Below are positions 18,081 through 26,968 of a DNA stretch of 37,291 nt, piece by piece. The stretch spans positions 1 to 37,291 of the forward strand of contig JAFXGX010000024.1 in the NCBI GenBank assembly GCA_017536695.1, written 5' to 3'. Numbering within the stretch: the first letter of the stretch is position 1; each line of letters begins with the position of its first letter. A program made the translations under genes and the position numbers. The notes beneath the pieces were generated by a model. The model had not been told where the DNA came from. It saw only the letters and a list, made by a program, of their open reading frames with translations, and did no database searches. This stretch comes from Bacteroidaceae bacterium. Its GTDB lineage: Bacteria; Bacteroidota; Bacteroidia; Bacteroidales; Bacteroidaceae.

Positions 18081-19154
18081 TTAACTAAACATGTTGTACA
18101 AATCTGTTGTCAGCAGGAATATCACGCCCAATACGATAACTGCAAGGATTACGACTGCCGCTATGAGCACCCTCTTGTGAAGCAATGAGCGTTCGTTCAC
18201 AATCTTGACTTCCGTAGGCTGGACAATATGCTCCTCGGCATTTTTGGTCTCATTCACAAACTCTATTGCATTTGTCATGTTGAGACGGTTCTCACGCTCA
18301 TCGGGTTTCATCTTGGCGAATTTCACCAAGTCGGCAACCTCAAGAATATCCTTCAGTTCCTTGATGCTCTCTTTATCCTTTATCTTGAGCAGCTCATCAA
18401 TGATTTCCGAGGTGGTCATCTCCTGTGCATCTATGCCGAAACGGTCGTGCATGTACTCCCTGAGTACATCAGTGAGTTGAGTGTAATACTCTTTCTCGTT
18501 ACCCTCGGCAGAGAGGGACTCGTTATTCCTTATCTCGTCGATTCTGTTGATGGCAATAACATGTGACGGCAGTTTAGGCTTGACCTTCACTATCCTGATG
18601 ATAGGTTTGTTCTTAACAAGACTTATAGTTGTCATAACCAATGCCACTGCTACAAGGATGAGGATGATTGCAAGATATATCGCATCGCGGAACTCTTCCC
18701 AAGTAAGCTGTACATCAACAACTTCCGCAGGACCTGCGATATTGTTGATGTTGGCGGTGTCAATCTCTACGCTGTATACATCAAGAATCAGCCTGTTCGA
18801 TGCAAATGTGTCCTTGTCAACAACGACCTCAAACGGAGGAATCTCGTATCGGGTACTGTCAAACGATGTTATCAGGTACTCCTGGATGTAGTTCTTCCTG
18901 CCGCCATCGACATTCTGGGAATACTCCTTTGACTCAAGAATCTCAATACCTTCGACAAGTTTCTCCTTTTCCAGCTCAGGAAGCACTACGTTGTAACCGC
19001 TGTCTATGCTCAATTCAAGCCTGGCTCTTGTCTGTTCGCCAATCCTCATGGCAAACGTATCGAGCTTGGCATTCAGAATCACATTCTGTGCAGTGGCTGC
19101 TGATATCTGTAATAGTAAAACAAGTGATATTATGTATAATACTTTCTTCTTCAT
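18081..19154 (-). CDS. Bat-operon protein with two membrane helices (DUF4381-like)
   Basis: A 357-residue protein with a signal peptide (cleavage near residue 22), a periplasmic beta domain (about 25-150) resembling the Ig-like units of BatD, a membrane helix at 157-180, a cytoplasmic helical part (about 195-310) and a last membrane helix at 329-349. The segment YYTQLTDVLREYMHDRFGI is like the core of DUF4381 and like the tail of BatD. Proteins of this kind commonly sit between the DUF58 and VWA genes in MoxR-type operons. The function is unknown; a structural partner of the VWA proteins is inferred. Confidence 0.8.
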   Translation of the reverse strand: MKKKVLYIISLVLLLQISAATAQNVILNAKLDTFAMRIGEQTRARLELSIDSGYNVVLPELEKEKLVEGIEILESKEYSQNVDGGRKNYIQEYLITSFDSTRYEIPPFEVVVDKDTFASNRLILDVYSVEIDTANINNIAGPAEVVDVQLTWEEFRDAIYLAIILILVAVALVMTTISLVKNKPIIRIVKVKPKLPSHVIAINRIDEIRNNESLSAEGNEKEYYTQLTDVLREYMHDRFGIDAQEMTTSEIIDELLKIKDKESIKELKDILEVADLVKFAKMKPDERENRLNMTNAIEFVNETKNAEEHIVQPTEVKIVNERSLLHKRVLIAAVVILAVIVLGVIFLLTTDLYNMFS

Positions 19155-19188
19155 TACTTTAAACGCAATTCATTAAAGCATGTCAGAG

Positions 19189-20058
19189 CTATCCGCGCTG
19201 AGCAAAAAGAGTCATAAGAGCCTTTACGTAATCTCCATCCGTGCTTATCGATACCGAGTCAACGCGGCTTCTGTTGAGCGTGTCCTCAAGTTTCGCTTTC
19301 TGTTCACGCCACCACTCCCTCTGTGCCGCCTGGACTTTTGATGAAGATGTGTCGACAAACATCTCTTCGCCGCTTTCCGAGTCGCGTACTTTGATGAGTC
19401 CTACTCTCGGGAGTTCTGCCAGACGGCGGTCGTACAGCTGTATCGCGACAACATCGTGCTTGCGGTTGGCAATAGTCATTGCATTGCGGAAATCATTGTT
19501 GTCAATGAAATCGCTGATGAGAAATGCGGTACAGCGCTTCTTCAAGGCATTGGTCAGATATTGCAACGGAACCGAGATGTCGGTTCTTGAGCTTTCAGGC
19601 TCAAAGTTGAGCAGTTCCCTTATTATATAAAGGATGTGCTTTCTGCCCTTCTGCGGCGGAATGAACTTTTCGACCTTGTCGGTAAAGAATATTACTCCAA
19701 TCTTGTCATTGTTCTGTATTGCAGCAAATGCTATTGTCGCTGCAATCTCGGTAAGCATGTCACGCTTGGTCTGTTTCACGGTACCGAAGTCAAGGCTCTC
19801 GGAGAGGTCGACAAGAAGCATGACTGTCAGTTCGCGCTCCTCCTCGAAAACCTTGATGAACGGCTTGTTGAAACGTGCTGTGACATTCCAGTCGATGTCG
19901 CGCACATCATCGCCGTACTGGTATTCGCGCACCTCGCTGAAGGACATACCACGCCCTTTAAAGGCCGAATGGTATTCTCCTGCAAAGATGTTATGCGAGA
20001 GACCGCGGGTCTTTATCTCAATCTTACGGACTTTCTTTATGAGATCACTTGTCTCCAT
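19189..20058 (-). CDS. DUF58 / VWA-like protein of the bat operon
   Basis: A 289-residue cytoplasmic protein with the DUF58 signature (YQYGDDVRDIDWNVTARF, then EEERELTVMLLVDLSESL). The latter includes a MIDAS-like DLSES. DUF58 proteins are constant neighbours of MoxR ATPases and are thought to be their VWA-type adaptors. The start codon overlaps the moxR stop by one base (TGATG at 20060-20056), which points to translational coupling. No membrane helix. Confidence 0.92.
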   Translation of the reverse strand: METSDLIKKVRKIEIKTRGLSHNIFAGEYHSAFKGRGMSFSEVREYQYGDDVRDIDWNVTARFNKPFIKVFEEERELTVMLLVDLSESLDFGTVKQTKRDMLTEIAATIAFAAIQNNDKIGVIFFTDKVEKFIPPQKGRKHILYIIRELLNFEPESSRTDISVPLQYLTNALKKRCTAFLISDFIDNNDFRNAMTIANRKHDVVAIQLYDRRLAELPRVGLIKVRDSESGEEMFVDTSSSKVQAAQREWWREQKAKLEDTLNRSRVDSVSISTDGDYVKALMTLFAQRG

Positions 20059-21053
20059 CAGGGCACTTCAACGCTGTTCAGAATCTGGCTTACAATCTCA
20101 TCGCTTGTCATGTTGCTTGCCTCAGCCTCGTAGCTCAGGCCTATACGATGACGCAATACATCGTGTGCAACAGCTCTCACATCCTCAGGGATGACATATC
20201 CTCTTCGCTTGATAAATGCGTAAGCACGAGCAGCTAAGGCAAGGTTGATTGATGCACGAGGTGAAGCACCGAAGGATATCATATCCTTCAGTTCGCTCAT
20301 GCCGTATTTCTCGGGGAAGCGTGTCGCGAATACGATATCGACAATATACTGTTCAATCTTCTCATCAAGATATACCTGACGTACGACCTTGCGCGCCTCG
20401 ACAATCTCCTCGGGCTTGAGAACGGGCTTGACCTCTATCTTCTCGCCTGTGATGTTCTGGCGGATGATTCTCTTCTCCTCGGAGAGCTCGGGGTATGATA
20501 TCACTACCTTGAGCATGAAACGGTCGACCTGCGCCTCGGGCAGCGGGTATGTACCCTCCTGCTCTATCGGGTTCTGTGTAGCAAGAACAAGGAAAGGCTG
20601 CGGCATCTTGAATGTCTCCTTTCCGATAGTTACCTGACGCTCCTGCATTGCCTCGAGAAGTGCACTCTGCACTTTTGCCGGGGCACGGTTAATCTCATCG
20701 GCGAGCACGAAGTTCGCGAATATCGGACCACGCTTTACCTTGAACTCCTCATTCTTCTGGCTGTATACCATTGTACCCACAACGTCGGCAGGCAAAAGGT
20801 CGGGTGTGAACTGTATGCGGCTGAAATCAGCATCTACCAGCTCCGAGAGAGTCTTTATCGCGAGTGTCTTTGCAAGACCGGGAAGACCCTCGAGGAGTAC
20901 ATGGCCGTCGGCAAGAAGACCGATGAGCAGCGACTCGACCAAATGTTTCTGACCGACAATCACCTGGTCCATTCCTGCCTGCAGATTGGTAATGAAACCG
21001 CTCTGTCTCTCAATCATCTCATTCAATTCTCGAATGTCTATTGTTGAACTCAT
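20058..21053 (-). CDS. MoxR-family AAA+ ATPase
   Basis: A 331-residue chaperone-like ATPase leading the bat operon. Walker A is LEGLPGLAKT (Lys62), Walker B is FVLADE (Asp119, Glu120), followed by the sensor-1 region LVLATQNP and a C-terminal lid with RRGYVIPEDV. MoxR proteins work with VWA and DUF58 partners, probably to assemble or activate protein complexes at the membrane. The gene has its own -7 box at 21096 and a 126-base gap from the gene upstream. Confidence 0.95.
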   Translation of the reverse strand: MSSTIDIRELNEMIERQSGFITNLQAGMDQVIVGQKHLVESLLIGLLADGHVLLEGLPGLAKTLAIKTLSELVDADFSRIQFTPDLLPADVVGTMVYSQKNEEFKVKRGPIFANFVLADEINRAPAKVQSALLEAMQERQVTIGKETFKMPQPFLVLATQNPIEQEGTYPLPEAQVDRFMLKVVISYPELSEEKRIIRQNITGEKIEVKPVLKPEEIVEARKVVRQVYLDEKIEQYIVDIVFATRFPEKYGMSELKDMISFGASPRASINLALAARAYAFIKRRGYVIPEDVRAVAHDVLRHRIGLSYEAEASNMTSDEIVSQILNSVEVP

Positions 21054-21088
21054 AGCTGTGTTATGTATTTATTATTTTAATTCCTTGT

Positions 21089-21096
21089 CAAAATTA
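21089..21096 (-). promoter_or_regulatory. -7 box (TAATTTTG) of the bat operon promoter
   Basis: An exact TAnnTTTG match, 36 bases before the moxR ATG, in the only gap longer than 100 bases within this minus-strand run. A properly spaced -33 TTTG is missing, so strength is unclear. Confidence 0.5.
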
Positions 21097-21179
21097 CCTC
21101 TTTGGCAACTCATTCAGTGTTAATTTTCCCAAAAGTGCCTTAACCATTGTTAGGCATAACATTATTTAACCCTGGGCAC

Positions 21180-22523
21180 TCATTTCTTTGGCTGCAATCT
21201 GGGTATCGACAGCTCCATTCCCACTGCAATGCCGTATGGTTTCTTCAAGTTATTGTGCTTTGCGATGTATGGCCATAGCTTTCTGCTGCCGTAGTAATCA
21301 TATGCAATCTTCGCAAGCCTCTCATCTTCGGCAACCACATGGACTGCAATATCGCCCTCTGTCACGTACAGTGTGGTATCTGCATCTGTAATATCCCTGT
21401 CGCTCCTTGCCGCAAGCTCATCAACCAAGATGAACGAGTATGCTGCATAATCCTCGCCCTCGTTTGATGCCTTAATCTCCTCTATTGGTGTTGCCGGCTC
21501 GGCTGTCGTTGCCGAGGCAACAGAATCCTCTATGATAACTGCGGGCTCATTCTTTGTCTCAGCAATAACTTCCTGGCTTGATACAATGTTCACGGCAATC
21601 TCTTCGCTTGTCTCATCTGATGCGTGATTCCTGCCCATCATTTTTATTGCAACAAATCCGCATACGGCACCTATTATAAAATAGATGGCAAAGCGCCATA
21701 TGTTGTTCCTCTTCTTGACAGGTGCTGCATCATTCTCTGTTGCATCATCCGGTTGCGCAGTAGCTGTATTCTCTGAAGTCTGCGAGTTTTCTTTTATATT
21801 ATCGCTTCCTGCTCTCTCTTCGTTTACGGGTTCCTCATCCCTTGTCTCTTCAGTGACATCATCTGAATAGTCTCCCATAGCCACCCCATCTGTTGTCTCA
21901 TCCAAAGTAGGCTCAACAGCTGCTGTATCTTCCTCTTCTTCTTCTTCGACTTCAACCCGCAACTCCTCTTCTGATGCAATAGGGCCTGCGACGTTGGAAA
22001 CGACATTGTCATCCTCATCCCTCGCTTGCTCCTCCTCAATCGGGATTGCGGCCTTTGGCTCATCGTGTCCGTTGCACTCATCCTCAAGAGGCATTTCTTC
22101 CTCTATTTCGGCAGCATTGAAAGGCGCAGGCATGTTTTCGCTGCTCTCTTCAGAAACAGCGTCGGAACCGTTTGCCTCATCATCGCTCTCATCCTGATAG
22201 TTGTCATCTATCTCTACAGGCTCGAACATGGCAAACGGACGGTTTACGCACTCCTTGAGGCTTTCGGCAGGAACGAATGTCAGTTTCCGATGTCCTTTGA
22301 TTTCTATTTTCTCTCCGGTATTCACATTGACGCTTGAGCGGTCGGCAACATCTGTGACCTTGAATGTTCCAAGGCCGTTAATCTTTACGATACCGTCCTG
22401 CTCGAGTCCTTCAATTATGATATCGAAGAGTGCTTTGGTAAAGAAATCCGCTTTTGCAACGGAAAGCCCGGCCTCCTTTGCGAGCAGGGCGCTTATGTCG
22501 GAATGATTCAATTTTTCACTCAT
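21180..22523 (-). CDS. HU-fold / membrane helix / LysM fusion protein
   Basis: A 447-residue protein with an unusual build. Residues 1-90 are an HU/IHF fold (NHSDISALLAKEAGLS.., INGLGTFKV). In its beta-arm the intercalating proline of HU is replaced by Val67 (NVNTG instead of NPxTG). Residues 105-268 form a very acidic, Ser/Thr/Pro-containing linker. A membrane helix follows at 275-295, with KKRNN before it, which favours an N-in topology. After another linker, a LysM domain occupies about 394-443 (VVAEDERLAKIAYDYYGS.., GMELSIP). This puts a DNA-binding-type domain in the cytoplasm and a peptidoglycan-binding-type domain in the periplasm. It starts 17 bases after a normal HU gene. Similar fusions are annotated as 'HU family protein' in Bacteroidota; the function is not established as far as I know. 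Confidence 0.88.
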   Translation of the reverse strand: MSEKLNHSDISALLAKEAGLSVAKADFFTKALFDIIIEGLEQDGIVKINGLGTFKVTDVADRSSVNVNTGEKIEIKGHRKLTFVPAESLKECVNRPFAMFEPVEIDDNYQDESDDEANGSDAVSEESSENMPAPFNAAEIEEEMPLEDECNGHDEPKAAIPIEEEQARDEDDNVVSNVAGPIASEEELRVEVEEEEEEDTAAVEPTLDETTDGVAMGDYSDDVTEETRDEEPVNEERAGSDNIKENSQTSENTATAQPDDATENDAAPVKKRNNIWRFAIYFIIGAVCGFVAIKMMGRNHASDETSEEIAVNIVSSQEVIAETKNEPAVIIEDSVASATTAEPATPIEEIKASNEGEDYAAYSFILVDELAARSDRDITDADTTLYVTEGDIAVHVVAEDERLAKIAYDYYGSRKLWPYIAKHNNLKKPYGIAVGMELSIPRLQPKK

Positions 22524-22540
22524 GACTAAACCTCCTCCGG

Positions 22541-22813
22541 TTATTTGAATTTATCCTTAAGTTTGTTGCTCGGACGGAAAGCCGGCTGAATCTTGGGCGG
22601 TACAAGAAAGCGCTGTCCGGTCTTCGGGTTTACCGAAACACGCTCCTTCTTCATCTTTGTCTCGATGACTCCAAAGCCCGAGATGTTTATCTGGTCGCCC
22701 TCTTTCAAGCGTTCAGTAACTACATTTACGAATGCGTCTACATTCGTAGCCGTTTCGGCGGGTGTCATCCCACACCTTTTCGACAGTCTCGTGATAAATT
22801 CCTTGTTGTTCAT
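22541..22813 (-). CDS. HU family DNA-binding protein
   Basis: A 90-residue nucleoid protein with the full HU fold: two N-terminal helices (FITRLSKRCGMTPAETATN, VNVVTERLKEGDQI), the strand INISGFGVIE and a beta-arm with the conserved VNPKTG including the DNA-intercalating proline. HU dimers bend and compact DNA. Lying between rimO (47 bases upstream) and the HU-LysM fusion (17 bases downstream), it is probably co-expressed with both, and a heterodimer with the fusion's HU domain is possible. Confidence 0.93.
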   Translation of the reverse strand: MNNKEFITRLSKRCGMTPAETATNVDAFVNVVTERLKEGDQINISGFGVIETKMKKERVSVNPKTGQRFLVPPKIQPAFRPSNKLKDKFK

Positions 22814-22860
22814 TCTCTTTAGCGTGATTAATCAACCTCAAACAATCATCCTCGCATTTG

Positions 22861-24162
22861 TTACTGTATAACCGTTCCCATAAGATCGAACTCTGTAGAA
22901 TCGGTAATCTGGACATCGTAGAAATTTCCGATAGCAAGCTCGCCTTCGTTTACGTTAATGAGAACCTCGGTGTCCACATCGGGAGAGTCAAATTCAGTAC
23001 GTCCGATATAATAGTCGCCCTCTATGCGGTCAATTATAGTCCTGGAGGTCTTGCCGACCTTCTCATCGTTGAGTCTTGTGGATATTCTCTGCTGAACCTC
23101 CATAAGCCTGTCAAGACGCTCCTGCTTTTTCTTCTTTGAAACACTGTCCCTGTAGTTCTCTGCTGCGTATGTGCCGTCTTCCTCACAATAGGCAAATGCA
23201 CCCAGACGGTCGAATCTTGCCCACTTTACGAACTCCATAAGTTCCTCGAACTCTTTCTCTCCTTCGCCGGGGAATCCCACCATCATTGTGGTGCGCAGAC
23301 AAATGCCCGGAACCTCCTGACGCATTCTCTCGACAAGCGCGTAGGTATCCTCCTTTGTGACATGTCGCTGCATCTTCTTGAGTACCTTTGTACTCACATG
23401 CTGCAATGCAATGTCAAGATACTTGCACACATTCTTTCTTTCGCGCATCACACGCAGAAGGTCGTAAGGGAAGTTTGACGGGTAAGCATAGTGCAGCCTT
23501 ATCCACTCCACCCCCTCGATGTCCGATATACGCTCTACAAGCTCGGCGATTTTCTGTTTCTTGTAGATATCAATACCATAGTATGTCAGTTCCTGAGCGA
23601 TTATCTGGAACTCCTTCACGCCCTTTGATACAAGGTAGTGCACCTCATCGAGTATCTCCTCAATCGGGCGTGACTTGTGAGGGCCCGTGATTATAGGAAT
23701 CGCGCAGTATGCGCAATGTCGGTTACAACCCTCTGAGATTTTCAGATAAGCATAATGTCCAGGCGTGGTAAGCACGCGCTCCTGAGCTATCATCTCGTTA
23801 TACTCGTTCTTGAGGTCGGCTATAAGCTCTGTCCAGTTGAACTTGCCATAAAACTTGTCGACCTGCGAGATTTCTTCACGCAGTTCCGTCAGGTAACGCT
23901 CCGACAGACAGCCCATCACATAGAGTTTTTTGAGATCGCCCTCATCCTTGCGCTGGCAGAACTCGAGAATCATGTTTATCGACTCCTGCTTGGCATCGCC
24001 GATAAAGCCGCATGTATTTATTACGGCAATCTCGCCACAAGGTTCCTCGCTGTCGTGGGTAACCTCATAGCCGCACTCCTCGAGCTGACGCATCAGGTGC
24101 TCCGAATCGACAAGATTCTTGGAGCATCCCATGGTTATTATATCTACACGGTTCTTTTTCAT
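22861..24162 (-). CDS. rimO: Ribosomal protein S12 methylthiotransferase RimO
   Basis: A radical-SAM enzyme that adds a methylthio group to the conserved Asp of ribosomal protein S12. The 433-residue product has an N-terminal UPF0004 domain with cluster cysteines Cys13 (GCSKNLVDSE), Cys51 and Cys85, the radical-SAM motif CNRHCAYC (146-153) and a C-terminal TRAM domain (about 365-433). The MGCSKNLVDSE start is diagnostic of RimO against MiaB. Its ATG overlaps the ftsY stop by one base (TAATG at 24164-24160), so the two are translationally coupled. Confidence 0.96.
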   Translation of the reverse strand: MKKNRVDIITMGCSKNLVDSEHLMRQLEECGYEVTHDSEEPCGEIAVINTCGFIGDAKQESINMILEFCQRKDEGDLKKLYVMGCLSERYLTELREEISQVDKFYGKFNWTELIADLKNEYNEMIAQERVLTTPGHYAYLKISEGCNRHCAYCAIPIITGPHKSRPIEEILDEVHYLVSKGVKEFQIIAQELTYYGIDIYKKQKIAELVERISDIEGVEWIRLHYAYPSNFPYDLLRVMRERKNVCKYLDIALQHVSTKVLKKMQRHVTKEDTYALVERMRQEVPGICLRTTMMVGFPGEGEKEFEELMEFVKWARFDRLGAFAYCEEDGTYAAENYRDSVSKKKKQERLDRLMEVQQRISTRLNDEKVGKTSRTIIDRIEGDYYIGRTEFDSPDVDTEVLINVNEGELAIGNFYDVQITDSTEFDLMGTVIQ

Positions 24163-25118
24163 TATCCAAAGAGTGAATCAACGAACTCCTCGCGGTTGAA
24201 TATCTGCAAGTGGTCAATACCCTCGCCGAGGCCGATATATTTTACTGGAATCTTGAACTGGTCGCTGATGCCAATGACAACACCACCCTTGGCAGTACCA
24301 TCGAGTTTGGTAATGGCAAGCGATGTGACCTCAGTCGCCTTTGTGAACTGCTTTGCCTGCTCGAAGGCATTCTGACCTGTAGAGCCGTCAAGCACCAGCA
24401 TCACGTCGTTAGGCGCAGTCGGAAGGACCTTCTGCATTACGTTCTTTATCTTGGTAAGCTCGTTCATGAGACCGACCTTGTTGTGCAGACGTCCGGCAGT
24501 ATCAATTATTACCACATCGGCGTTGTTAGCCACTGCTGACGCCAAAGTGTCATATGCGACCGATGCAGGGTCGGAACCCATGCCCTGCTTTATTACGGGC
24601 ACGTCGGCACGCTTTCCCCACTCCACCAGCTGTTCAACGGCTGCTGCGCGGAAAGTGTCGGCTGCGCCGAGGTATACCTTCTTGCCTGCTTTTTTGTACT
24701 GGTGTGCCAATTTCCCAATAGTAGTTGTCTTTCCCACTCCGTTGACGCCAACGACCATTATAACATACGGCTTACCGGGTGTCGTCGGAATGTTGAACGT
24801 ATCGCCACAGTCGTTGCTGTTGTTCTCCATCAATAGCTGTGCAATCTCATCCTTGAGCAGCTTATTGAGTTCATTCGTATTCATGAACTTGTCGCGTGCG
24901 GCACGCTTCTGCACGCGGTCAATGATTTTCAGTGTAGTCTCTACACCGACATCCGATGTAACGAGCACCTCTTCGAGGTTGTCCAGAACCTCATCATCTA
25001 TTTCGCTCTTTCCGGCAATCGCACGTGCAATCTTGCCGAATACACTCTCTTTTGTCTTTGAGAGGCCCTTGTCAAGAACCTCTTTCTTCTCTTTGCTGAA
25101 AAAACTGAATATTCCCAT
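24162..25118 (-). CDS. ftsY: Signal recognition particle receptor FtsY
   Basis: The SRP receptor GTPase that docks ribosome-nascent-chain complexes at the inner membrane. It has 318 residues, a short form without the acidic A domain of E. coli, as usual in Bacteroidota. Parts: helical N domain (1-90), G1 loop GVNGVGKTTT, DTAGR motif (G3), the TKLD motif (G4) and the closing GLGEGIDHLQIF. It is encoded between lepA (68 bases upstream) and rimO (1-base overlap). Confidence 0.97.
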   Translation of the reverse strand: MGIFSFFSKEKKEVLDKGLSKTKESVFGKIARAIAGKSEIDDEVLDNLEEVLVTSDVGVETTLKIIDRVQKRAARDKFMNTNELNKLLKDEIAQLLMENNSNDCGDTFNIPTTPGKPYVIMVVGVNGVGKTTTIGKLAHQYKKAGKKVYLGAADTFRAAAVEQLVEWGKRADVPVIKQGMGSDPASVAYDTLASAVANNADVVIIDTAGRLHNKVGLMNELTKIKNVMQKVLPTAPNDVMLVLDGSTGQNAFEQAKQFTKATEVTSLAITKLDGTAKGGVVIGISDQFKIPVKYIGLGEGIDHLQIFNREEFVDSLFG

Positions 25119-25186
25119 ATTCTCTTTCTTAAGTTATTATCCACTGCATGCCTGCAATCGCTGCACGGCTCTATGCAGAACTGTTA

Positions 25187-26968
25187 TCAATCAAGTTTCA
25201 GTACTGCGAGGAACGCCTTTTGTGGCACCTCTACATTACCAATCTGCTTCATGCGTTTCTTACCCTTCTTCTGTTTCTCGAGCAACTTGCGTTTACGTGA
25301 AACGTCACCTCCGTAACATTTTGCAGTCACATCCTTACGAACCTGCTTGATTGTCTCGCGGGCAATAATTTTTGTTCCAATGGCTGCCTGTAACGCAATG
25401 TCGAACTGCTGTCTCGGTATAAGGTCGCGGAGTTTCTCGCACATCTGACGGCCGAGGCCGTAGGCGTTGTCCACATGCGTAAGCGTGGAGAGTGCGTCCA
25501 CAGGCTCTCCGTTGAGCAATATATCGAGCTTGATGAGTTTTGAAGTCCTGAACCCGGCGGGATGATAATCGAACGATGCATATCCCTTTGATATACTCTT
25601 GAGCTTGTCGTAGAAGTCAATCACAATCTCGCCCAGCGGCAGGAGGAAACGTATATCCACACGGTTACCTGTAATGAACTCCTGTTTCAGCAGCTCGCCG
25701 CGTTTTGAAAGGCACAGTGTCATGATTGGACCTATGTAGTCGGCGCGCGTGATGATGCTTGCGTTGATGTACGGCTCCTCGATGTGGTCTATCAGAGTCT
25801 GGTCGGGCATGCCACCTGGATTGTGTACCTCCTTGGCCTCGCCCTGCTTGTCGTATACCATATACGACACGTTAGGAACAGTAGTGATAACGCTCATGTC
25901 GAACTCGCGGTCAAGACGCTCCTGAACAATCTCCATGTGCAGCAGTCCAAGGAAGCCGCAACGGAAACCGAAACCGAGTGCAGCCGATGACTCGGGCGTG
26001 AATGTCAGCGAAGCATCATTGAGCTGCAGTTTCTCGAGCGAGGCACGCAAGTCCTCGTAATCCTCGGCCTCTATCGGGTAAACACCGGCAAAGACCATCG
26101 GCTTTACCTCCTCAAAACCCGAGATTGCCGCAGCGCAAGGGCGTGCAATGTGCGTAATGGTGTCGCCCACCTTTACCTCGCGTGATGTCTTGATACCCGA
26201 AATTATATAACCCACGTCGCCTGTACGCAGTTCCTGACGTGGCGACAATTCCATTTTCAGAACTCCGATTTCATCAGCGTCGTACTCCTTGCCCGTATTG
26301 AAGAACTTTACCTTGTCGCCCTTGCGGAGTACTCCGTTGGTTATCTTGAAGTATGCGATGATTCCGCGGAACGAGTTGAACACCGAGTCGAAAATAAGTG
26401 CCTGCAATGGAGCCTCTTCATCGCCTTGCGGAGCAGGTATGCGCTCGACAACGGCAGCGAGAATCTCATCTACACCCATGCCGGTCTTTCCCGATGCCTC
26501 GATAATCTCATCGCGGTCACAGCCAAGAAGGTCAACAATTTCATCTTTTACCTCCTCAGGCATTGCGTTTATCATGTCGCACTTGTTTATGACAGGGATA
26601 ATCTCTAGGCCATGGTCGATTGCCATATACAGGTTCGATATTGTCTGCGCCTGTACACCCTGTGTCGCATCCACGACGAGCAGCGCACCCTCGCAGGCTG
26701 CGATAGAGCGCGAAACCTCGTACGAGAAGTCGACATGTCCCGGAGTGTCAATGAGGTTCAGAGTATATTTCTCGCCATTGTGCACATACTCCATCTGTAT
26801 GGCATGGCTCTTGATAGTGATGCCACGCTCTTTTTCAAGGTCCATATTGTCCAGCATCTGACCTTCGGTAATGTTGATTGTCTTGGTCGTCTCAAGAAGA
26901 CGGTCGGCCAAAGTGGATTTTCCGTGGTCAATGTGGGCAATGATACAAAAGTTTCTGATTTTTTCCAT
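25187..26968 (-). CDS. lepA: Elongation factor 4 (LepA)
   Basis: A ribosome-bound GTPase that can drive back-translocation and affects initiation and ribosome assembly. It is 593 residues, in the normal 595-600 range. G motifs: [10 protein letters not shown] (G1), DTPGHVDF (G3), NKCD (G4). The unique LepA C-terminal domain is present ([14 protein letters not shown] near the end). The frame starts at [14 protein letters not shown], the conserved N-terminus. It begins a unit lepA-ftsY-rimO-HU. Confidence 0.98.

What the first reader, a model, noticed from the sequence alone, without database searches (positions are those of the whole stretch)
21180..22523. HU-like domain fused through a membrane helix to a LysM domain: a possible nucleoid-to-cell-wall tether
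Seen: an HU fold (1-90), an acidic linker (about 105-268), one membrane helix (275-295) with basic residues on the N side, and a LysM domain (about 394-443). Known: HU binds DNA, LysM binds peptidoglycan. Inferred: one protein spans the inner membrane and could tie DNA to the wall. Two more details fit a specialised job. The beta-arm proline that HU uses to kink DNA is Val67 here, and a normal HU gene lies just 17 bases upstream, so mixed dimers could anchor bulk HU-bound DNA.
Basis: partly seen in the sequence, partly recalled or inferred. Interest (0 to 1): 0.78.

Follow-up and report, generated by a model that had tools for sequence, protein, structure and literature searches.

The report
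Membrane-anchored paired HU envelope protein
A bacterial protein carries a DNA-packaging-type (HU) head, a membrane helix and a cell-wall-binding-type tail, and seems to work as one half of a matched pair with the small HU made by the gene next door, which may tie the chromosome to the cell envelope in some bacteria but probably not in relatives that have lost the DNA-gripping arms.

Summary
On the minus strand, 22523-21180 encodes a 447-residue protein with an HU fold (1-94), an acidic linker (net -48), one membrane helix (about 273-297) and a LysM fold (386-445). It is not a one-off: at least 78 of 392 genomes of the order, in 20 of 109 families, carry it. The "DNA-to-wall tether" reading is partly supported. 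The HU head here is near neutral (net -2, pI 5.6), so alone it is a doubtful DNA binder. The neighbouring HU ("HU1", net +9, keeps the intercalating Pro) is not the genome's only HU. It looks like a dedicated partner: of 109 HU-LysM proteins, 99 have HU1 directly upstream and 9 carry an HU1-like domain in the same chain (at least 4 changes on a tree). Where the HU-LysM arm is kept, HU1 keeps Pro in 90 of 90; where it is lost (at least 7 changes), in only 5 of 18. I infer an obligate asymmetric HU1:HU2 heterodimer anchored across the inner membrane. In the window's genus it probably holds DNA; in armless lineages the head must do something else. Closest known kind: CCDC81-type HU-HU-SPOR protein, also in this genome. 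New variant of a known kind.

The parts
21180..22523 (-). HU2-TM-LysM gene, 447 aa
   Evidence: homologues in at least 78 of 392 genomes of the order (counted by eye)
22242..22508 (-). HU fold (residues 6-94) with a full arm carrying Val67 in place of Pro
   Evidence: Pfam 1.1e-19; genome scan places PF00216 here; AF2 pLDDT mostly 84-89; Foldseek HU/IHF
22203..22238 (-). Conserved extension after the HU fold, residues 96-107 (PFAMFEPVEIDD)
   Evidence: Mostly invariant in 29 genus members; an NxPFxxF-type motif in 103 of 109 family members and 1 of 99 partner HUs
21705..22199 (-). Acidic disordered linker, residues 109-273, net -48
21633..21707 (-). Membrane helix, about residues 273-297, preceded by VKKRNN
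   Evidence: Hydropathy peak 278-296; AF2 helix 273-316
21186..21368 (-). LysM domain, about residues 386-446
22541..22813 (-). HU1, the partner HU, 90 aa, keeps the intercalating Pro63, net +9
   Evidence: a separate HU1 lies directly upstream in 99 of 109 family members

Best explanation
The two adjacent genes make one module. HU1 (soluble) and the HU head of HU-LysM (HU2, membrane-anchored) form an obligate, asymmetric HU heterodimer on the cytoplasmic face of the inner membrane. The acidic linker acts as a flexible, DNA-repelling spacer; the single helix crosses the membrane; the periplasmic linker and LysM reach and bind peptidoglycan. In the window's genus HU1 supplies most of the basic surface and the one intercalating Pro, so the pair probably holds DNA loosely at the envelope. 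Shown: domains, family, HU1 partnership in gene order and fusions, arm changes. Inferred: heterodimer contact, DNA binding, peptidoglycan binding, topology.
For: Architecture. Of 109 non-redundant HU-LysM proteins, 99 have a separate HU1 directly upstream; 55 of these 99 overlap it (starts taken as the first start codon, so some overlaps are overcalled) and the other 44 have gaps of 40 bases or less. Nine have an HU1-like domain at the N-terminus of the same chain; an HU2-like domain behind it is detected in 7 of the 9, weakly (17-19 bits) in four of them; the tree needs at least 4 changes between split and fused. HU1 keeps Pro in 90 of 90 members whose HU2 arm is intact, but in only 5 of 18 whose HU2 arm is lost (one mis-sliced row taken out). 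Charge is split: mean +6.8 for HU1 and -0.1 for HU2 in 89 separate arm-intact pairs. All 109 have their strongest hydrophobic segment between HU and LysM. HubP, with LysM-TM-acidic cytosolic part, affects the place of chromosome 1's origin through ParA1 (passages of PMC8789113), and FimV's LysM binds sacculi (passages of PMC12918733), so the plan is workable.
Against: No complex was modelled and no DNA or peptidoglycan binding was tested. HU2 is not basic, and a -48 linker beside it disfavours DNA. In three groups with separate partners (f26 six genomes, f75 three, G389; 10 pairs) the HU2 arm is deleted, and in 8 of these 10 HU1's Pro is gone too, so DNA binding is not constant. The arm/Pro correlation is not significant when only well-supported independent pairs are used (4 pairs, median p 0.25). 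K/R bias favours N-in in 82 of 109, is equal in 12 and opposite in 15. One genome (G367, L127) has HU2 without HU1. G320 and G372 (same genus) have an HU2 protein in which my profile finds no LysM. PDB relatives of the LysM include phage baseplate proteins and Kbp, so the LysM fold alone does not prove wall binding. [quoted passage not shown]
Confidence: 0.55

Rival explanations
1. The HU1:HU2 head is a protein-protein scaffold, as proposed for CCDC81-type HU domains (recalled), and any DNA binding is ancestral or incidental. The module recruits a cytoplasmic partner to the wall-facing membrane.
For: Arm status changes at least 7 times while HU fold, helix and LysM are kept. HU2 lacks net positive charge. 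10 of 34 members weakly match Pfam HU-CCDC81_bac_2, best 6.1e-5. The same genome has a CCDC81-type HU-HU-SPOR protein. A eukaryotic CCDC81b is proposed as a structural protein inside axonemal microtubules (passages of PMC11961760).
Against: In 90 of 109 members the HU2 arm is present and HU1 keeps Pro in all 90; HU1 is basic there. Such conservation suggests DNA contact in most sampled members (29 of the 109 are from the window's genus).
Confidence: 0.3
2. One reading: HU2 binds DNA itself, or mixes with the bulk HU, and ties bulk nucleoid to the wall.
For: HU fold with a complete arm including R62, K72, K76 and K80.
Against: HU2 net -2 and pI 5.6; the neighbour looks like a dedicated HU1, and another HU exists elsewhere in the genome.
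Confidence: 0.07
3. Sequestration: the membrane-anchored acidic protein titrates HU1 away from DNA (linker as DNA mimic) and releases it on an envelope signal.
For: Linker net -48; D/E average 27% of the cytoplasmic linker across 109 proteins.
Against: Linker length varies from 33 to 437 residues and the linker aligns poorly, not what a folded DNA mimic would show; the single-chain forms cannot release HU1.
Confidence: 0.06

Closest known systems
CCDC81-type prokaryotic HU proteins (Pfam HU-CCDC81_bac_1/bac_2) with SPOR domain, Bacteroidota; Burroughs, Kaur, Zhang and Aravind 2017, Cell Cycle
   Same: Two HU-like domains, a hydrophobic segment, and a peptidoglycan-binding-type domain at the end. 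The own-genome example (334 aa) has bac_1, bac_2 and SPOR. Recalled, not read: the paper predicts a chromosome-partition role for the bacteroidete forms; only its title was seen, in a reference list.
   Different: HU-LysM uses LysM, an acidic linker, and normally a separate HU1 gene, with arms mostly present. The bac_1 domain is found in 120 of 148 order genomes (SPOR not checked there), and in 23 of the 28 of these that have HU-LysM (counted by eye), so one does not replace the other.
HubP / FimV polar landmark proteins of gammaproteobacteria
   Same: Single-pass protein with periplasmic LysM, one TM and an acidic, largely unstructured cytoplasmic region; HubP places the chromosome 1 origin via ParA1 (passages of PMC8789113, PMC12918733).
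   Different: Opposite order (LysM N-terminal), TPR/FimV end instead of HU, chromosome held indirectly; P. putida FimV has no effect on chromosome segregation. Analogy only.
HU / IHF heterodimers and single-chain IHF (PDB 2iie)
   Same: Two different HU-fold subunits; the natural single chains resemble 2iie in layout.
   Different: Neither HU nor IHF carries a membrane helix or wall domain (recalled).

Membership tests
HU/IHF superfamily (PF00216) | HU fold, two helices then a sheet with arms | tested here: met
   Pfam 1.1e-19; AF2; Foldseek, 38 matches at E<=0.001, all HU/IHF-type
Canonical DNA-bending HU | Intercalating Pro in the arm and a basic surface | tested here: not met
   HU2 has Val67 and net -2; partner HU1 meets both. 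The genome's other HU is basic but has Ile
Canonical DNA-bending HU | DNA binding | not testable with these tools
   Needs EMSA or ChIP
LysM domain (PF01476) | Sequence profile and b-a-a-b fold | tested here: met
   Window protein below the Pfam cut-off (15.6 against 20.9 bits), but 13 of 34 members match at E<=0.05, the family profile hits PDB LysM, fold predicted
LysM domain (PF01476) | Peptidoglycan binding | not testable with these tools
   No binding assay
CCDC81-type HU-TM-SPOR | HU-CCDC81_bac_1 and bac_2 domains | tested here: not met
   Window protein lists neither at E<=1 (filters drop most matches above 0.1); 10 of 34 members match bac_2 weakly; HU1 of the window matches bac_2 at 0.033, below its cut-off
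CCDC81-type HU-TM-SPOR | SPOR domain | tested here: not met
   LysM instead
HubP/FimV | N-terminal periplasmic LysM and C-terminal FimV/TPR domain | tested here: not met
   Order reversed, no such domain

The most novel reading that the evidence does not exclude
An order-wide module: an obligate HU heterodimer built into the cell envelope, in which one subunit spans the inner membrane and binds the wall while the partner supplies DNA intercalation, giving a direct physical nucleoid-peptidoglycan link. In several lineages the DNA-gripping arms were dismantled in both partners, and in some the pair was fused into one chain, converging on the CCDC81 plan: evolution caught turning a DNA-binding pair into a protein scaffold.
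Probability: 0.4. Interest if true: 0.82.

Novelty: new variant of a known kind. Interest (0 to 1): 0.6.

Why it matters
How the nucleoid is placed relative to the envelope in this order is little known (recalled). A conserved two-gene module with an HU head and a wall-binding-type tail is a concrete, testable candidate. The repeated, often paired loss of DNA-binding features offers a natural experiment on how an HU protein becomes a structural adaptor, the step proposed for the ancestors of eukaryotic CCDC81 (recalled).

Tried and rejected
Chance ORF or misannotation: rejected; the protein is conserved across 20 families. HU-LysM as replacement for the CCDC81 type: rejected; 23 of 28 genomes have both. 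Presence outside the order: one search of 247 genomes of the class (order members included) at E<=1e-18 gave 9 matches, 8 in the order; the ninth, G566 (L150), was an HU-only match in a 200-aa frame and was not followed up; weaker matches were not asked for. The one scan of genome contigs gave 7 loci, of which two (L035, L037; titled Deltaproteobacteria and Micavibrio) are short HU proteins without LysM. Viral contigs: none encoded a relative of the HU region. Literature for this architecture: nine searches (listings) showed no paper on it; passages were read; the library lacks most subscription journals and the Burroughs 2017 paper is not held. PMC10434189 names an HU and a LysM gene of B. 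thetaiotaomicron, but as separate genes. Rfam 19000-26000: nothing at gathering score. Promoter-like sites 10 against 5.4 expected, terminators 5 against 3.9: not used.

Rows dropped: L014 (cut by contig end); 123 loci collapsed to 109 by identical last 150 residues; G404, split over two contigs, not fetched; L114 and L119 (no LysM detected). L127 was counted as arm-lost through a slicing error (its arm reads SVNVKTG) and I removed it; L136 is 'intact' by gap count but was labelled lost. The second HU domain of L120 and L122 was not detected by profile, so their arm status rests on forced alignment. L063 was itself a row of the HU1 alignment, so its HU1 score is by construction; 34 of the found proteins are rows of the search profile A4. 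Regex arm finding failed for many rows and was replaced by HMM alignment.

Full report
What is there. The finding's interval is an ORF on the minus strand (22523 to 21180, 447 aa) that starts 17 bases after the HU gene 22813-22541, with GGAGGAGG between them. HU fold 1-94, acidic linker 109-273 (57 D/E, 9 K/R), one hydrophobic helix, and a LysM fold at the end are supported by Pfam, hydropathy and AlphaFold, and the HU part by Foldseek. LysM is under Pfam's cut-off for this one protein, but clearer for the family. The AlphaFold alignment held 6 sequences, mean pLDDT 56.9, with the linkers below 50. The neighbouring HU also matches Pfam HU-HIG above its cut-off, 30.4 against 26.2 bits, besides Bac_DNA_binding at 90.8 bits.

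How widespread. In the same genus 34 of 37 genomes have a match at E<=1e-3; the three without are under 90% complete. In the order, 392 genomes of at least 90% completeness were searched with a 34-row profile built partly from earlier hits. Counting by eye from its list, which is capped, and from fetched loci, 78 genomes in 20 of the 109 families drawn carry HU and LysM in one open frame. Not counted: G404 (split over contigs), G245 (stops inside), G320 and G372 (no LysM found by my profile). In a draw of 247 genomes of the class at E<=1e-18, 9 matched, 8 of them in the order; the ninth (G566) matched over HU only. The organism was not identified by name; the nearest named contigs are titled Bacteroidaceae and Bacteroides MAGs.

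The partner. From 123 loci I kept 109 non-redundant HU-LysM proteins. 99 have a separate small HU (HU1) directly upstream: 55 overlap the called HU-LysM start, 44 are separated by 40 bases or less. 9 have no separate HU1; their N-terminal domain scores as HU1, and a second, HU2-like domain is detected in 7 of the 9. These lie in family f83 (6 genomes), and in G262 (f1), G242 (f20) and G066 (f31). One (L127) has HU2 alone. A tree built without the arm columns needs at least 4 changes between split and fused. Other neighbours are less constant: rimO upstream in 63 of 106 loci with enough sequence, moxR downstream in 63 of 76. HU1 is thus the constant companion. It is not the genome's only HU: a second one lies on contig C28.

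The arms. At the position of the HU intercalating Pro, 90 members with an intact HU2 arm have V 75, I 8, P 5, E 1, F 1; in all 90 HU1 has Pro. The five Pro-bearing HU2s (L057, L058, L130, L131, L135) form one group in the tree (support 92). 18 members have lost the arm (19, minus L127, mis-sliced); in 13 of these HU1's Pro is also gone. Fewest changes on the tree: arm 7, HU1 Pro 6. On well-supported branches only 4 independent pairs exist; HU1's Pro follows the arm in 2.8 of 4 on average, never goes the other way, and the sign test is not significant (median p 0.25). I therefore call the joint decay suggestive, and rest the partnership mainly on adjacency and fusion.

Charge. Window HU2 domain net -2, pI 5.6; HU1 net +9, pI 10.1; the other genomic HU net +6, with Ile at the Pro position. 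Over 89 separate arm-intact pairs HU2 averages -0.1 and HU1 +6.8; over 10 separate armless pairs HU2 averages -4.6 and HU1 +1.6.

Topology. All 109 proteins have their strongest hydrophobic segment between HU and LysM; 105 have exactly one above the threshold, 2 have two and 2 fall just under it. K/R on the N side exceeds the C side in 82, equals it in 12 and is lower in 15. Periplasmic linkers are 31 to 156 residues long; a 31-residue extended chain would be about 11 nm, enough to reach the wall (distances recalled, not measured).

Mechanism. I favour an asymmetric HU1:HU2 heterodimer at the inner membrane, connected to peptidoglycan by LysM, with HU1 giving the DNA grip in species such as this one. 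Armless lineages show that the module persists without that grip, so a scaffold role is the main rival. HubP shows that a LysM-TM-acidic protein can place a chromosome origin (passages of PMC8789113), and FimV's LysM binds sacculi, though loss of FimV in P. putida leaves chromosome segregation unaffected (passages of PMC12918733).

Known kinds. The same genome encodes a CCDC81-type protein with HU-CCDC81_bac_1, bac_2 and SPOR; the bac_1 domain is present in 120 of 148 order genomes (SPOR not checked there). The idea of an HU-to-wall protein is therefore not new in principle (Burroughs et al. 2017, recalled; title seen). What I could not find in nine searches of the held library is this LysM form, its dedicated HU1 partner, its natural single-chain forms and the joint arm loss.

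Counts were mended to 78 of 392 genomes and 20 of 109 families; the CCDC81 count was narrowed to the bac_1 domain; the FimV result against a chromosome role and the HU-HIG match were added.

Noticed in passing
L060, L061, L062, L066: Short proteins (185-215 aa) with a C-terminal LysM, in order members where I found no HU-LysM; the two whose sequence I printed (L060, L066) have N-terminal CxxC pairs like a zinc ribbon and one hydrophobic segment (by eye): possibly another inside-to-wall design.
   Followed up: no
L115:1992-2993 (+), own genome contig C100: CCDC81-type HU-HU-SPOR protein, followed by a gene for a protein with CxxC pairs and an FHA-like look (by eye).
   Followed up: partly
L114, L119 (genomes G320, G372, same genus): HU2-like proteins of 462 and 535 aa beside HU1 and rimO in which my LysM profile finds nothing; the C-terminus may have diverged or been replaced.
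   Followed up: no
L127 (genome G367): HU2-LysM directly after rimO with no HU1 beside it; its arm is basic (net +7), possibly a homodimer-forming exception.
   Followed up: partly
L137:1492-1767 (-), own genome contig C28: The genome's other HU lacks the canonical intercalating Pro (Ile in place), so HU1 is the only one of the three PF00216 domains found here with Pro.
   Followed up: partly
L150 (genome G566, another order of the class): HU-like match in a 200-residue open frame, longer than a plain HU; not examined.
   Followed up: no
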